A stretch of 5,206 nt of DNA from a bacterium (GTDB taxonomy: Bacteria > 4484-113 > JALSIF01): contig JALSIF010000046.1 in NCBI GenBank assembly GCA_026981635.1, positions 1-5,206 on the forward strand, in the 5' to 3' direction. Within the stretch, counting starts at the first letter, position 1; the number at the start of each line of letters is the position of its first letter. A program made the position numbers and the translations under genes. The notes beneath the pieces were generated by a model, which was not told the origin of the DNA, made no database searches, and saw nothing but the letters and a program-made list of their open reading frames with translations. This document shows, in pieces, positions 812 to 4,118 of this stretch.

Positions 812-1117
812 GTGGGCCTGAGCATCCCCGAGAGCGCCTACTCGGTCCTCAGCCGCGCCCTGGTTGAGACCCGCCGGCACATTGACCAGACCGCCCTCCG
901 GGTGGTGGAGAAGAGTGCCCGCGGCGAGCTGGATAGCCTGGTGGTGGACCAGCTGGAGCTTTCCCGCCAGGTCCTCTCCCTGCGCGCCCTGGTGCGGACG
1001 GCAAAGCTCCTTCAGCTTGCTGACAGGGAGATCCTGGACCTGCCCCTCAGGGCCCGCTATGAGATCCGCCGCTTCCCCTCAGAGGGCCGGCGCGGCCTGA
1101 TTGACCTCTACGCCTGA
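812..1117 (+). CDS. Small helical protein of unknown function (101 aa)
   Basis: I do not recognise this protein with confidence. It starts at GTG 812, the only usable start because an in-frame TAG lies at 800-802. The Shine-Dalgarno is poor (GGGGGT at 795-800, about 11 bases upstream). It lies 29 bases after the SMC stop on the same strand, so co-transcription is likely. The sequence is rich in Leu, Arg, Glu and Ala and is predicted to be almost all helix, with no signal peptide or membrane segment. The C-terminal half (TAKLLQLADREILDLPL, about 62-78) faintly resembles the C-terminal helix of flagellar rod proteins such as FlgC (pattern K-x-x-Q-x-A-D...LLDL). This is too weak for a call. Codon use and GC bias look like the neighbouring real genes, which supports coding. 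Its last 39 bases overlap the end of the opposite-strand β-helix gene. Confidence 0.62.
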   Translation: MGLSIPESAYSVLSRALVETRRHIDQTALRVVEKSARGELDSLVVDQLELSRQVLSLRALVRTAKLLQLADREILDLPLRARYEIRRFPSEGRRGLIDLYA

Positions 1118-2419
1118 CTCCTTCTCCCCGGTGGAGAAGGGGAGGGGCGGGGTGTACCACCCTCCATAGGCCCCCATGTCGCTCCTTGAGCCGTCGGGGT
1201 CAAAGATGTTTGGGTCCCCCGCGTCAATCAGGGGAGAATCTGGCCGGAGGTGAAAGTCAAACTCCGAGACGAAGCGGGGGTCAACCGATAGGTTTCCCCC
1301 CTTCCCCGTCTGGTCCTCAATGCCCAGGTATTCCCCCTCCCGGTTGCCATAGACATCGTTGTAGGCGAGGAATACCTGCTTGCTGTTGATCCACACCCCC
1401 ACCCGGGGAGCCACCCACTGGTAGCGGCTGCCGTTGAAGGCCACGATGTTGTTTACCATGTTCAGGGTTGAGGTGGGGTGCCAGGCGGCCACCCCCACAT
1501 TGCCGTGGTAGGCGATGACGTTGTTGTAGAGGTCCAGTCGGCCTCGGTCGGCGGCGATGGCCCCCCAGCCTAGGGTGTGGTGGATGCGATTGCGGCTGGC
1601 AAAGATGTAGGAGCTGCCAAAGGCCCCCAGCCCCTTCCAGTAGCCGCTCACCTCGTTGTCAATCACCACCGCCCGGCTGTCCCAGGTGGTGGCGATGCCC
1701 ACTCCCCGCCCCCTCAGCACCCGGTTGCGGTAGGCGAGGAGGAACCCTCCCCGGTAGAGGGTGATGCCGTCCCAGCCGTTGCGGGTGATCAGGTTGTCGT
1801 GGGCGACGATAAAGGCCCCCTCGCGGCCAAAGATGCCCCCCACCCCCACCACCACCCCCTGGGTGTCCCCTTCGTTGTCGCGGATCACCACCTGGTCAAT
1901 CTCCACCAGGCTCCGCCTCACCACCACCGCCGCATCGGCTGCCCGCCCGTCGGGGTCCCGCTTGCCGCCGGTAATGGTCAGGTTGGTGATCCTCACCCGG
2001 GGAGCATCCTCAATGTAGACCCCATATCCTGCCCCCGTCTCTAGCACCGTCAGCTCCCGGCCCGAGCCTTTCAGGGTTAGGCTCTTTCCCCGGATGACAA
2101 AGCCGGTGGTGGCCTCGGCCCCCTCGCCGGGGTCTAGGCAGTTGGCGCACACCGGATCGTGAAAGCTTTCCACCTCTGCCCGGTAGGTGCCGGGAAGGAG
2201 CTGGATCACCGCCCCGTCGGGTGCCCGCTCAATGGCCACCTCCAGGCTCCGGAAGGGATCGCCCTTGGTACCCGTCCCCACCTTTCCGTCCCCAAGGTCG
2301 TCCACATAGACCACCGGTGGACCCTGCTCCGGGAAGGCTTCCCCCCTGGGGTAGGCCGAAGACAGGGCTGAAAGCCCCACTGCCAGCACTAAGGTCCCAT
2401 AAACAGCGGAGATTCTCAT
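1079..2419 (-). CDS. Secreted right-handed parallel β-helix repeat protein
   Basis: This is a 446-residue exported protein when started at ATG 2419. That start is preferred over an in-frame ATG 18 codons upstream because it has a strong purine-rich ribosome site and places a signal peptide at the very N-terminus: hydrophobic core about 4-20, likely cleavage after Ser-Ser-Ala at 22. After a short linker comes the N-terminal strand typical of pectate-lyase-like or DUF1565 proteins (FRSLEVAIERAPDG..LLPGTY, 56-79). Successive ~22-residue coils follow, each with an N-x-[VI] turn: HDNLITRNG (207), YRNRVLRG (230), IDNEVSG (253), SRNRIHH (275), YNNVIAYHG (298), VNNIVAFNG (322), YNDVYGN (353). The tail DPRFVSEFDFHLRPDSPLIDAG with DMGAYGG (380-420) is the usual C-cap of this family. 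CANC (91-94) is a possible disulphide. The fold suits surface polysaccharide binding or cleavage, but no catalytic set can be identified. The last ~25 residues, past GAYGG, are read through a palindrome and into the converging gene, and may be a random extension. Confidence 0.9.
   Translation of the reverse strand: MRISAVYGTLVLAVGLSALSSAYPRGEAFPEQGPPVVYVDDLGDGKVGTGTKGDPFRSLEVAIERAPDGAVIQLLPGTYRAEVESFHDPVCANCLDPGEGAEATTGFVIRGKSLTLKGSGRELTVLETGAGYGVYIEDAPRVRITNLTITGGKRDPDGRAADAAVVVRRSLVEIDQVVIRDNEGDTQGVVVGVGGIFGREGAFIVAHDNLITRNGWDGITLYRGGFLLAYRNRVLRGRGVGIATTWDSRAVVIDNEVSGYWKGLGAFGSSYIFASRNRIHHTLGWGAIAADRGRLDLYNNVIAYHGNVGVAAWHPTSTLNMVNNIVAFNGSRYQWVAPRVGVWINSKQVFLAYNDVYGNREGEYLGIEDQTGKGGNLSVDPRFVSEFDFHLRPDSPLIDAGDPNIFDPDGSRSDMGAYGGWYTPPLPFSTGEKESGVEVNQAAPAL
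1118..1142. repeat. Hairpin palindrome at the convergent gene junction (possible terminator or dispersed palindromic repeat)
   Basis: CCTTCTCC (1120-1127) pairs perfectly with GGAGAAGG (1133-1140) around a 5-base loop. A G:T and a C:G pair extend the stem to 10 bp. It begins at the base after the stop of the + strand small gene and lies inside the 3' end of the opposite-strand β-helix gene. There is no T-run on either side, so it is not a classic intrinsic terminator. It could still slow or end transcription between the converging genes. C/T-rich and G/A-rich palindromes of this kind are common as dispersed elements in some GC-rich genomes, so it may be a mobile palindromic repeat. No second copy was seen in this window. 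Confidence 0.5.
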
Positions 2420-2466: not shown

Positions 2467-2495
2467 TTGACAAGCTTCGCAGAGTACTCTAAGAT
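2467..2495 (+). promoter_or_regulatory. σ70-type promoter of the membrane-protein/regulator operon
   Basis: There is a perfect TTGACA -35 box at 2467-2472, a 17-base spacer and a TAAGAT -10 box at 2490-2495 (4 of 6 matches to TATAAT, keeping the key T-A and A-T positions). Transcription would start near 2502, giving a leader of about 23 bases that carries the ribosome site AAGGAGG (2513-2519). The local AT-richness contrasts with the GC-rich surroundings. The -10 box sits between two copies of a palindrome, so the promoter is probably regulated. Confidence 0.75.
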
Positions 2496-2507
2496 TTAGA
2501 GTACTCT
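2481..2507. promoter_or_regulatory. Double-palindrome operator flanking the -10 box
   Basis: The 10-bp perfect palindrome AGAGTACTCT occurs twice, at 2481-2490 and 2498-2507, with centres 17 bp apart. The intervening bases extend the symmetry, so the whole element is a perfect 27-bp inverted repeat with two 12-bp arms (2481-2492 and 2496-2507) around the triplet GAT. The first copy fills the -35/-10 spacer and touches the first base of the -10 box; the second covers the expected transcription start. A protein bound here would block RNA polymerase. The natural candidate is the winged-helix regulator encoded as the third gene of this operon (3736-4062), since such dimers bind short palindromes and often control their own operon. 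The sequence is seen directly; the pairing with that regulator is inferred. Confidence 0.75.
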
Positions 2508-2524
2508 ATCCCAAGGAGGTTGTC

Positions 2525-3106
2525 ATGGTTCAGGAGAGTTCAGGAATCGGCGACCTCACCTACGTGAGGCAGGTGGTGGAGCGGGCTGGCGACCGCTCCG
2601 TCACTCCCCCCGCCTGCATGTACATGTGGGCGGTGATTGTGCTGGCGGGCTTTGCCCTGTTTGACCTTGCGCCCCGCTACGGACTTCTCTACTGGCTGGC
2701 CATGCCGGTGGTGGGGGCGGTGGCCTCCGTCTTCATCGGCAGAAGCTACCGCCGGGCGCTGGGGATAAGGGACCGCCGACTGGGACTGAGGATCGGCTCC
2801 CACTGGTTCACCTTCCTTTTGGGCTACCTGATGCTCTTGGTGCTACCCCTTACCGGCCAGATCACCTGGCCCATCTTCGGGGTGCTGATGATGCTGCTTA
2901 CCTCCCTCTTCTTCCTTACCGCCTCCTTCCACCTTGACCGCCGCTACTTGCCCCTGGGCATCGTTACTGCCCTCATCTACCTGGCCCTGCTTTTCCTGCC
3001 CATCTTCAGCTGGACTCTGATTGGGGCGGTCTTTGCCGCCGGCTTCGTCATGGCAGGCTGGCTGGCCGGCGCCAGCCGCACTTCTGCTCACACTGGGGGG
3101 GAGTAG
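2525..3106 (+). CDS. Six-helix integral membrane protein of unknown function, first of a tandem pair
   Basis: This protein of 193 residues starts at ATG 2525, five bases after an ideal AAGGAGG (2513-2519). It has a short soluble N-terminus with an amphipathic stretch DLTYVRQVVE (10-19), then TPP (27-29), then six likely membrane helices at about 32-49, 53-72, 91-110, 115-135, 141-160 and 162-182. A basic loop lies between helices 2 and 3 (YRRALGIRDRRLGLR, 75-89), and by the positive-inside rule this loop and the N-terminus should be cytoplasmic. The tail is short and polar. No catalytic motif, transporter signature or metal site is apparent, so the function is unknown. It is a clear paralog of the next gene, with which it aligns without gaps for ~162 residues. 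It leads an operon with that paralog and an HTH_34 regulator, which suggests a membrane role (sensor, channel or stress protein) controlled by that regulator. The promoter and double operator lie immediately upstream. Confidence 0.9.
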   Translation: MVQESSGIGDLTYVRQVVERAGDRSVTPPACMYMWAVIVLAGFALFDLAPRYGLLYWLAMPVVGAVASVFIGRSYRRALGIRDRRLGLRIGSHWFTFLLGYLMLLVLPLTGQITWPIFGVLMMLLTSLFFLTASFHLDRRYLPLGIVTALIYLALLFLPIFSWTLIGAVFAAGFVMAGWLAGASRTSAHTGGE

Positions 3107-3145
3107 TAGGGTTGCCAGTCAAACCCCATCCAAGGAGGAACTGAA

Positions 3146-3736
3146 ATGGAACAGAGGACGACAGGTATAAGTGACCTCTCCTACGTGAGGGAGGTGGTTG
3201 AGCAGGTGGAGGATCGTCCCATCACCCCGCCCATCATCTTTTACCTGTGGGCGCTCATTGTCCTTGGCGGCTACCTGGTGGACCACTTCCAGCATTCTCT
3301 CGTTTTCAGCTACTGGACGGTGGTCCCCCTGCTGGGGGCCATCCTCAGTGCCTACCTGGGCAACCGCTACTGGCGGAATCTGGGCATCCAGGCCCGCCGG
3401 CTGGGTCGCCGCTACGGCCTCCACTGGCTGATCTTCTTTGCCGGCTTTGGGCTGCTTCTTCCCGCCGTCAAGGCCGGGCAGATGGACTGGCATGCCTTTG
3501 GCGTGATGGTGATGCTGCTTGTGGCCCTCTTCTACCTGCTTGCCGCCCTCCACTTGGACGGCCGCTTCCTGCTGGTCGGCCTGGTGCTGGTGGGAGCCTA
3601 CCTGACCATGCTCTACTTTCCGGCCGTAAGTGGTGTGGTGCTCATCGGTGCAGTGGTGGGAGCCCTGGTGCTGACCGGGCTGATCATCCAGTTCTCCGGC
3701 TCCTATGCCAGGTCCCTGGCTGGGAGGAGGGAGTGA
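3146..3736 (+). CDS. Six-helix integral membrane protein of unknown function, second of a tandem pair
   Basis: This protein of 196 residues starts at ATG 3146, with AAGGAGG at 3132-3138. It shares the architecture of the preceding protein: soluble N-terminus with DLSYVREVVE (10-19) and ITPP (26-29), then membrane helices at about 31-48, 54-72, 92-109, 115-135, 141-159 and 161-182. The basic loop YWRNLGIQARRLGRR (75-89) sits between helices 2 and 3. By hand count about 73 of the first 162 positions are identical between the two proteins. The strictest conservation is in the N-terminal segment, the LGI..RRLG loop, HW (93-94), FGV (118-120) and HLD (136-138). These shared soluble-face positions are the best clue to a common function, which I cannot name. 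The proteins may form a heteromer or be specialised copies. The gene lies 39 bases after its paralog, and its stop codon overlaps the start of the regulator gene, so the three are probably one transcript. Confidence 0.9.
   Translation: MEQRTTGISDLSYVREVVEQVEDRPITPPIIFYLWALIVLGGYLVDHFQHSLVFSYWTVVPLLGAILSAYLGNRYWRNLGIQARRLGRRYGLHWLIFFAGFGLLLPAVKAGQMDWHAFGVMVMLLVALFYLLAALHLDGRFLLVGLVLVGAYLTMLYFPAVSGVVLIGAVVGALVLTGLIIQFSGSYARSLAGRRE
3722..3731 (+). promoter_or_regulatory. Ribosome binding site of the regulator gene, inside the upstream coding sequence
   Basis: GGGAGGAGGG ends about five bases before ATG 3736 and lies wholly within the last codons of the second membrane protein. With the one-base stop/start overlap (TGATG), it fixes the regulator start and implies translational coupling to the membrane protein. 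Confidence 0.7.
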
Positions 3737-4062
3737 TGGCGGTGCGGGAGGAAGGCTCTCCCCAGAAGATCAACTCCGGTCTGGACCGGCTGCTGGAGCA
3801 CCGCACCCGCCTGGCTGCCCTGGTGCTGCTTACCCACTTTGACGAGCTGAGTTTCGTGCGCCTGCGCGACGACCTGGGGGAGACCGACGGCAACCTGGGC
3901 GCCCACCTGCGGAAGCTGGAGGAGGCCGGCTACATTGATGTGCGCAAGGAGTTTCAGGGGCGAAAGCCCATCACCTGGTACTCCATAACCAACCGGGGCC
4001 GCGAGGCCCTGCGCAAGCACCTTGCCACCCTGGAGCGACTCATCCAGGAGGCCAAGGTCTAG
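3736..4062 (+). CDS. Winged-helix transcriptional regulator, HTH_34 type (MarR/ArsR-like)
   Basis: This 108-residue cytoplasmic DNA-binding protein consists of essentially one winged-helix domain. It matches the HTH_34 family pattern along its length: LDRLLEHRTRLAALVLL (16-32, helix 1), ELSFVRLRDDLGETDGNLGAHLRKLEEAGY (37-66, helix-turn-helix with the hallmark TDGNL..HLRKLE), the wing DVRKEFQGRKPITWYSIT (68-85), and a C-terminal helix GREALRKHLATLERLI (88-103) likely used for dimerisation. No separate ligand domain or cysteine/histidine metal site is visible, so its signal is unknown. Such proteins are often repressors encoded beside membrane proteins. Here it is the third gene of the operon, overlapping the preceding stop by one base. 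Binding to the AGAGTACTCT pair at the operon promoter would give negative autoregulation; this is inferred. Start ATG 3736 is chosen by its ribosome site; the same frame stays open upstream only as an out-of-frame shadow of the membrane gene. Confidence 0.92.
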   Translation: MAVREEGSPQKINSGLDRLLEHRTRLAALVLLTHFDELSFVRLRDDLGETDGNLGAHLRKLEEAGYIDVRKEFQGRKPITWYSITNRGREALRKHLATLERLIQEAKV

Positions 4063-4075
4063 CCTCTTTCCAATG

Positions 4076-4118
4076 AAAAGCGGGGGAGGGCTGGTTCAGC
4101 TCTCCCCCGCCTGCTTTT
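4076..4118. terminator. Bidirectional intrinsic terminator between converging operons
   Basis: A 14-bp stem (4080-4093 with 4097-4110, including one G:T pair) closes a 3-base loop. Its outer 9 bp, GCGGGGGAG/CTCCCCCGC, are perfect. On the + strand the stem is followed by CTGCTTTT (4111-4118). On the - strand it is followed directly by TTTT (complement of AAAA at 4076-4079). It therefore fits as the terminator of both the membrane-protein/regulator operon and the thiolase-dinB pair. The stop codon of the DinB gene (4096-4098) lies in the hairpin, at the loop edge. Confidence 0.85.

What the first reader, a model, noticed from the sequence alone, without database searches (positions are those of the whole stretch)
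2467..4062. Self-regulated cassette of two duplicated membrane proteins plus an HTH_34 regulator
The sequence shows a strong promoter with a double palindromic operator, two tandem paralogous six-helix membrane proteins, and a one-domain winged-helix regulator overlapping the last of them, closed by an intrinsic terminator. This is a complete, self-contained unit. The membrane proteins carry no known catalytic or transporter motif, but share strictly conserved non-membrane positions (DLxYVRxVVE, LGI..RRLG, HW, HLD). I infer a regulated membrane function not described under any name I know. HTH_34 regulators next to small membrane proteins are seen elsewhere, so the general pairing may be known while its role is not.
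Basis: partly seen in the sequence, partly recalled or inferred. Interest (0 to 1): 0.65.

Follow-up and report, generated by a model that had tools for sequence, protein, structure and literature searches.

The report
Self-repressing membrane-protein and winged-helix gene cassette
A small DNA-binding protein most likely switches off its own operon and that of two duplicated membrane proteins; the same unnamed pairing, with a related DNA switch site, recurs across many bacterial phyla and at least one archaeon, and one letter of the site follows one amino acid of the protein, so its DNA-reading code can be tested directly.

Summary
Promoter and operator (2467-2508), two 46%-identical six-helix membrane proteins (2525-3106, 3146-3739), an overlapping HTH_34 regulator (3736-4062) and a strong hairpin (4080-4110) form one unit. 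It is one case of a widespread pairing that I found under no name. Of 65 HTH_34 genes from 385 genomes, 55 have a small multi-TM gene directly upstream; of 80 regulators nearest ours, 77 do (control: 7 of 66 downstream genes). No Pfam or NCBIfam family covers the membrane proteins. Their promoters share an inverted repeat ACTTTG-N5-CAAAGT: 35 of 55, against 0.9 expected. Operator letters follow recognition-helix residues: Gly55 goes with ACTCT (33/35; other residues 1/72), and Lys/Gln51 with AGTTT (8/8). The window obeys the rule (Gly55, ACTCTA-AGATT-TAGAGT) and its site is unique in its genome, so the regulator is most likely a local autorepressor. It resembles HAAS-PadR dyads and shares cdPadR1's operator geometry, but has neither a HAAS domain nor a PadR-scoring regulator. 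I think the membrane protein feeds a membrane signal to the regulator (about 50%); the rival is that it is the effector. The tandem duplication is rare (3-4 of 125 loci). Phylogenetically independent support for the code is still thin.

The parts
2467..2495 (+). sigma-70-like promoter, TTGACA (2467-2472) / 17 nt / TAAGAT (2490-2495)
   Evidence: 10 of 12 matches; 0.9 expected in the window by chance, so supported by position only
2480..2508 (.). operator array of four half-sites CAGAGT|ACTCTA-AGATT-TAGAGT|ACTCTA; central 17-bp inverted repeat 2486-2502 covers the -10 box
2513..2520 (+). Shine-Dalgarno AAGGAGGT of the first membrane gene
   Evidence: sequence
2525..3106 (+). membrane protein M1, 193 aa, predicted six TM helices, paralogue of M2
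3146..3739 (+). membrane protein M2, 196 aa; N-terminal helix 5-22 (DLSYVREVVE), TM helices 29-48, 50-79, 84-109, 115-136, 141-157, 159-194
3736..4062 (+). one-domain winged-helix regulator, PF13601 (HTH_34), 108 aa; start overlaps M2 stop (ATGA)
3886..3900 (+). codons for residues 51-55 (DGNLG) at the start of the recognition helix; Asp51 covaries with operator position 2, Gly55 with position 4
4080..4110 (+). GC-rich hairpin, likely terminator (perhaps bidirectional; overlaps the end of the convergent DinB-like gene)

Best explanation
An autoregulated winged-helix / membrane-protein dyad. Step 1 (strongly inferred from comparative evidence, not measured): dimers of the HTH_34 protein bind the array of ACTCTA half-sites over the -10 box and repress the whole operon, which is the only clear target in the genome. 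Step 2 (inferred): the membrane protein, made from the same transcript, is the input side. Its cytosolic face (N-terminal helix DLxYVR, the Arg-rich loop LGI..RRLG/HW and the HLDRR loop) either senses the membrane state or holds the regulator, and so sets repression. The result is a feedback loop that keeps a membrane component at a level fitting the envelope. Step 3 (observed, function inferred): M1 and M2 are a tandem duplicate of this single partner, perhaps forming a hetero-oligomer.
For: Linkage: 55 of 65 HTH_34 genes from 385 genomes and 77 of 80 nearest relatives have a 3-6 TM gene directly upstream; the same test on downstream genes gives 7 of 66. In the other direction, all nine membrane-profile hits with E < 1e-6 outside the genomes used to build the profile lie next to an HTH_34 gene. 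Operator: ACTTTG-N5-CAAAGT at >= 10 of 12 in 35 of 55 upstream regions, 0.9 expected; other spacers 0-5. Half-sites abut the repeat on the left in 38, on the right in 63 and on both sides in 23 of 107 loci; chance is about 2% per side. Residue-base covariation: Gly55 with CC 33/35 against 1/72; residue 55 is the best of the 89 protein columns tested for operator position 4, and residue 51 the best for position 2. Plasmid-borne loci not used for the motif, one of them archaeal, carry the site in 7 of 8 cases (one of these just under the threshold), and Arg51 goes with AGTTTG. Unique site in the genome. The regulator has no room for a separate ligand domain (108 aa). Arg-rich loops put the N terminus and the conserved motifs on the cytosolic side. 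The closest described analogue, HAAS-PadR, is proposed to work this way (PMC11237479).
Against: No binding, expression or interaction has been measured. Nothing shows that the membrane protein touches the regulator. Winged-helix dimers of this size can bind small ligands at the dimer interface, so a cytosolic ligand is possible. One group of loci with an ACTTTG operator has a membrane partner that is not detectably homologous (DIQLG group, hhalign 3%), so a fixed sensor-regulator interface is not universal. On the regulator tree only two independent, well-supported switches could be tested for each residue.
Confidence: 0.52

Rival explanations
1. The membrane proteins are the effectors (envelope-protective proteins, transporter or channel subunits). 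The HTH_34 protein is an autorepressor that responds to a cytosolic ligand or stress by itself, and the membrane proteins do not signal to it.
For: Operons are extended by envelope or export genes in other lineages: ABC transporter ATPase in 13 of 48 downstream proteins scanned, LytB/IspH, undecaprenyl diphosphate synthase and septation protein A, creD in Bacteroides. In Listeria the DUF1700 membrane protein of a PadR operon is the gene that causes the cold-sensitive phenotype when derepressed (PMC6624303). TM helices are as conserved as the cytosolic face.
Against: Family-level pairing in both directions is tighter than for usual repressor/transporter operons. The regulator has only the winged-helix domain. 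No transporter or enzyme motif was found.
Confidence: 0.36
2. A toxin-antitoxin-like or defence cassette in which the membrane proteins are toxic and the regulator is only the repressor.
For: Small autoregulated cassette; the regulator scores with Csa3 winged-helix models in PADLOC (40 bits); occasional plasmid copies.
Against: Membrane proteins match no PADLOC or PHROG model. The regulator lacks the CARF domain of Csa3 and no cas gene is in the window. 44 of 72,556 plasmid records have a relative of the regulator, and in the loci read the pair mostly sits in chromosomes beside housekeeping genes.
Confidence: 0.05
3. The regulator is a regional or global regulator and its place next to the membrane genes is incidental.
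For: cdPadR1, with the same operator geometry, has about 200 predicted sites in its genome (PMC5050560).
Against: Only one perfect site in the window's genome, and near-matches are no more frequent than for the reversed control pattern. The linkage holds across phyla.
Confidence: 0.05

Closest known systems
HAAS-PadR-like wHTH dyad (Ravi et al. 2024, PMC11237479)
   Same: standalone one-domain wHTH always next to a multi-TM protein with an N-terminal cytosolic helical part; proposed membrane-to-DNA signalling without phosphorelay
   Different: no HAAS/DUF1700/DUF1129/DUF1048 match; the model has one 18-residue helix before TM1 instead of a three-helix domain with GxP; the regulator is HTH_34, under the PadR cut-off; the membrane gene usually comes first in the operon
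cdPadR1 of Clostridioides difficile (PMC5050560)
   Same: autoregulatory winged-helix protein; operator TACT-N11-AGTA, the same geometry as T-ACTCTAAGATTTAGAGT-A in the window; two sites in its own promoter
   Different: cdPadR1 is a PadR-s2 protein with about 200 predicted sites in its genome; here one site, and no membrane partner is described there
Listeria LltR operon (PadR repressor + DUF1700 membrane protein Lmo0600; PMC6624303)
   Same: strong autorepressor of a multi-spanning membrane protein of unknown function in one operon
   Different: different membrane family (DUF1700), different regulator family, regulator gene first
PH1061 of Pyrococcus horikoshii (PDB 1ub9)
   Same: only solved structure found by sequence for the regulator (E = 3e-5)
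   Different: function, operator and partner not known from the tools used here

Membership tests
HTH_34 (PF13601) | profile score over the curated cut-off | tested here: met
   92.8 bits against 27
PadR (PF03551) | profile score over the curated cut-off | tested here: not met
   22.8 bits against 27, 43 residues matched
PadR (PF03551) | operator geometry of a characterised member (cdPadR1, TACT-N11-AGTA) | tested here: met
   window 2485-2503 reads TACTCTAAGATTTAGAGTA; exact in 44 of 90 position-2-C sites
HAAS-PadR dyad | HAAS domain: three helices with kinked GxP third helix | tested here: not met
   no HAAS/DUF1700/DUF1129/DUF1048 match among 14 members up to E 10; AF2 model has a single helix 5-22 before TM1
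HAAS-PadR dyad | standalone one-domain wHTH gene next to a multi-TM gene | tested here: met
   but the wHTH is HTH_34, not PadR by score
HAAS-PadR dyad | signal passes from the membrane protein to the regulator | not testable with these tools
   no complex prediction or experiment available; only proposed for HAAS-PadR itself
Known membrane protein families (Pfam, NCBIfam) | match over cut-off to M1, M2 or relatives | tested here: not met
   no match for 28 members at E <= 0.01 except one spurious hit
Solved membrane folds (PDB) | fold match well above helical-bundle background | tested here: inconclusive
   Foldseek best E 1.3; VIA best Z 9.7, under the background of about 13 for helical bundles
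Csa3 CRISPR regulators | CARF domain plus wHTH, next to cas genes | tested here: not met
   108-aa protein, wHTH only; no cas gene in the window
Autorepressor | binds and represses its own promoter | not tested
   inferred from operator conservation and residue-base covariation; no binding assay

The most novel reading that the evidence does not exclude
HTH_34 / six-TM pairs are a third kind of minimal membrane-to-promoter signalling dyad beside two-component and HAAS-PadR systems. They occur across many bacterial phyla and in at least one archaeon, act only on their own operon through an array of 17-bp repeats, and read DNA by a two-residue code (residue 51 sets operator position 2, residue 55 position 4). 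In the window the sensor has been duplicated into a hetero-pair.
Probability: 0.4. Interest if true: 0.75.

Novelty: new variant of a known kind. Interest (0 to 1): 0.55.

Why it matters
A regulator family present in about 15% of the genomes sampled (58 of 385) gets a predicted operator, a predicted target (its own operon) and a predicted recognition code that one EMSA with a single-residue swap can test. Its obligate membrane partner, so far 'hypothetical protein', becomes a defined family with a candidate role in envelope homeostasis. Model organisms such as Caulobacter and Bacteroides carry members.

Tried and rejected
The first genome-contig scan with the two membrane proteins found no relatives, and the 60- and 10-genome searches with them found none outside the window's genome; the family looked like an orphan until it was approached through the regulator. 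A mixed regulator alignment was too diverse for the scan. HTH_34 relatives in the window's own class (G003, G006) have no membrane partner. Solved structures: no sequence match for the membrane profile. Structure matches (designed six-helix barrel Z 9.7, TMEM45A Z 9.4, urea channel Z 6.4) are at the level of helical-bundle background and were not used. Literature searches for HTH_34, PF13601, PH1061 and the operator words gave no prior description; the library is open-access only, so an earlier description elsewhere is possible. RNA families: none. An exact search for the full operator array in viral contigs gave none. Considered and rejected: the double palindrome as two independent 10-bp palindromes AGAGTACTCT; the comparison shows that the dimer site is the 17-bp ACTCTA-N5-TAGAGT, and the 10-bp palindromes are junctions of neighbouring sites. 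A promoter -35/-10 enrichment near the repeats in other loci was weak (47 against 31, 64 against 58) and is not used as evidence.

Full report
What is there. The window holds, on the + strand, TTGACA-17-TAAGAT, an operator, two membrane genes and a winged-helix gene, closed by a hairpin. M1 (193 aa) and M2 (196 aa) are 46% identical. The 108-aa regulator is HTH_34, PF13601, at 92.8 bits, and its ATG overlaps the M2 stop. Both membrane proteins are without a Pfam, NCBIfam, PADLOC or PHROG match. The genome (1.75 Mb, 85% complete) has no other HTH_34 match and no other copy of the membrane family.

The membrane proteins are not orphans. Direct searches found none outside the genome, but relatives of the regulator on plasmids all proved to have a roughly 200-aa 'hypothetical protein' or open frame directly upstream (8 of 8 read). 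A systematic sample followed. PF13601 at E <= 1e-12 in 385 genomes gave 65 places; in 55 of them a 3-6 TM gene lies directly upstream. Among the 80 genome-contig loci whose regulators are nearest to ours it is 77. The same test on the next gene downstream gives 7 of 66. The link also holds from the other side. A profile of five membrane proteins found nine matches with E < 1e-6 in genomes other than those it was built from, and all nine lie next to an HTH_34 place.

Homology of the partners. The closest relatives of M1/M2 are single-copy proteins in Acidobacteria, Gemmatimonadota, Planctomycetota, Latescibacterota and Gammaproteobacteria MAGs (L138-L150, L152; 26-33% identity to M2). They keep D10, V14, R15, W35, W57, H93 and H136 in nearly all members, and HLD or HLE in most. 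Profile-profile comparison ties this clade to the Chloroflexota group (98.2%), the group around L151-L166 (98.4%), the alphaproteobacterial group (95%), the Bacteroidota group (94%) and, less surely, the FTAVPGW group (78%). A negative control (septation protein A) scores 0.2%. One further partner group (DIQLG, L071/L080/L085/L097) does not join (3%), although its promoters carry the same operator. AlphaFold2 with 14 sequences gives an N-terminal helix 5-22 and six TM helices at pLDDT 87. The Arg-rich loop between TM2 and TM3 and the absence of K/R in the TM3-TM4 loop suggest N-in/C-in, which puts DLxYVR, LGI..RRLG and HLDRR on the cytosolic side. Fold searches gave nothing above background.

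The operator. In 55 upstream regions the 8-mer AAGTACTT occurs in 10, against 0.4 expected. A spacer scan shows what it is: half-sites ACTTTG / CAAAGT at spacing 5 (>= 10 of 12) in 35 of 55 regions against 0.9 in dinucleotide shuffles, while other spacings give 0-5. Neighbouring half-sites abut this 17-bp repeat on the left in 38, on the right in 63 and on both sides in 23 of 107 loci, chance about 2% each, so the site is an array for several dimers. The window fits: CAGAGT|ACTCTA-AGATT-TAGAGT|ACTCTA. In its genome it is the only perfect match to ACTCT-N7-AGAGT; 13 one-mismatch places exist, no more than for the control pattern.

A recognition code. The window and its clade have ACTCT where most loci have ACTTT. 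Over 135 loci (107 with a site) Gly at regulator residue 55 goes with C at operator position 4 in both halves in 33 of 35, and other residues in 1 of 72 (Fisher 5e-24). Lys or Gln at residue 51 goes with G at position 2 in 8 of 8, and others in 2 of 99 (1e-10). Among 89 protein columns, residue 55 is the most informative for position 4 and residue 51 for position 2. Both lie at the start of the recognition helix, TDGNLGAHLRKLE. Caveat: these counts are not independent. On a tree built without the two columns there are 6 changes of Gly55. On well-supported branches only two independent pairs can be formed for each residue; they nearly always agree and never run the other way. Held-out loci agree as far as they go. 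Of eight plasmid loci, including the archaeon Natronosalvus, six have a site over the threshold and one just below. None of these regulators has Gly55 and all sites have T at position 4; Arg51 (L011) and Ser51 (L015) go with G at position 2, Asp51 with C, and Glu51 (L012) with a mixed site. In further genomes of one phylum the new Gly55 loci (L223, L228) have ACTCT in the left half and AGAGT in the right; of the two Ser55 loci one (L220) has T in both halves and the other (L221) a mixed site.

What it works like. cdPadR1 binds TACT(N11-12)AGTA in its own promoter (PMC5050560). The repeat found here, written with its flanking T and A, is TACT-N11-AGTA (exact in the window and in 44 of 90 comparable sites). 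This supports the claim that the site is the regulator's own and that HTH_34 proteins bind like PadR-s2 proteins. The best functional analogue is the HAAS-PadR dyad, where a multi-TM protein with a cytosolic helical domain is proposed to signal to a standalone wHTH (PMC11237479). Membership fails on two tested features: no HAAS domain, and PadR score under the cut-off. So this works like, but is not, HAAS-PadR.

Function of the membrane protein. Shown: near-obligate linkage, conserved cytosolic-face motifs, no catalytic family. Inferred: it is the signal input to the regulator. The rival is that it is the effector. Operon extensions in other lineages point to the envelope: 13 of 48 downstream proteins scanned are ABC ATPases, and there are IspH, undecaprenyl diphosphate synthase, septation protein A and CreD. 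In the Listeria LltR operon, with a different membrane family, derepression of the membrane protein is what harms growth in the cold (PMC6624303). I put the dyad reading slightly ahead because both partners are so rarely seen apart.

The duplication. Only the window, L087 (53% identity), L202 (65%) and, weakly, L208 have two tandem copies among 125 loci with room to see it. The two-copy state is therefore a rare, probably repeated, elaboration and not the essence of the cassette.

Verdict. Observation confirmed; interpretation partly supported. The window is a member of a widespread, apparently undescribed regulator/membrane-protein pairing. The new and testable content is the conserved operator and the two-residue recognition code; autorepression is strongly inferred, and the role of the membrane protein is open.

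Noticed in passing
L071, L080, L085, L097 (regions 0.2 kb upstream of the membrane gene): A second, not detectably homologous membrane family (IERKVYxxxFxDGLxDIQLG) sits in the same slot before HTH_34 with the same ACTTTG-type operator, so the membrane partner appears to be exchangeable.
   Followed up: partly
L115:2739-3518: HTH_34 locus with no membrane gene upstream but a 7-TM protein with the same kind of N-terminal helix directly downstream: order swapped.
   Followed up: no
L157, L163, L164, L174, L177, L181, L189, L200, L175, L195, L009: In Chloroflexota and Actinomycetota the cassette runs on, often with overlapping start/stop, into an ABC transporter ATPase (and in L009 a permease).
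   Followed up: partly
L093, L112 (LytB/IspH), L124 and L014 (undecaprenyl diphosphate synthase): In several loci the next gene after HTH_34 belongs to isoprenoid / undecaprenyl phosphate supply, a possible hint to the signal.
   Followed up: no
L091, L095 (G355, G226) and L120, L122: Regulators with Pro51/Ser55 or Asn55 have operators with one ACTCT and one ACTTT half: mixed half-sites, useful for testing the code.
   Followed up: no
window 1082-2419 (-): Secreted right-handed beta-helix / NosD-like protein divergent from the cassette; the intergenic region of about 105 bp may hold both promoters.
   Followed up: no
window 812-1117 (+): 101-aa ORF after the SMC gene without any Pfam match.
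   Followed up: no
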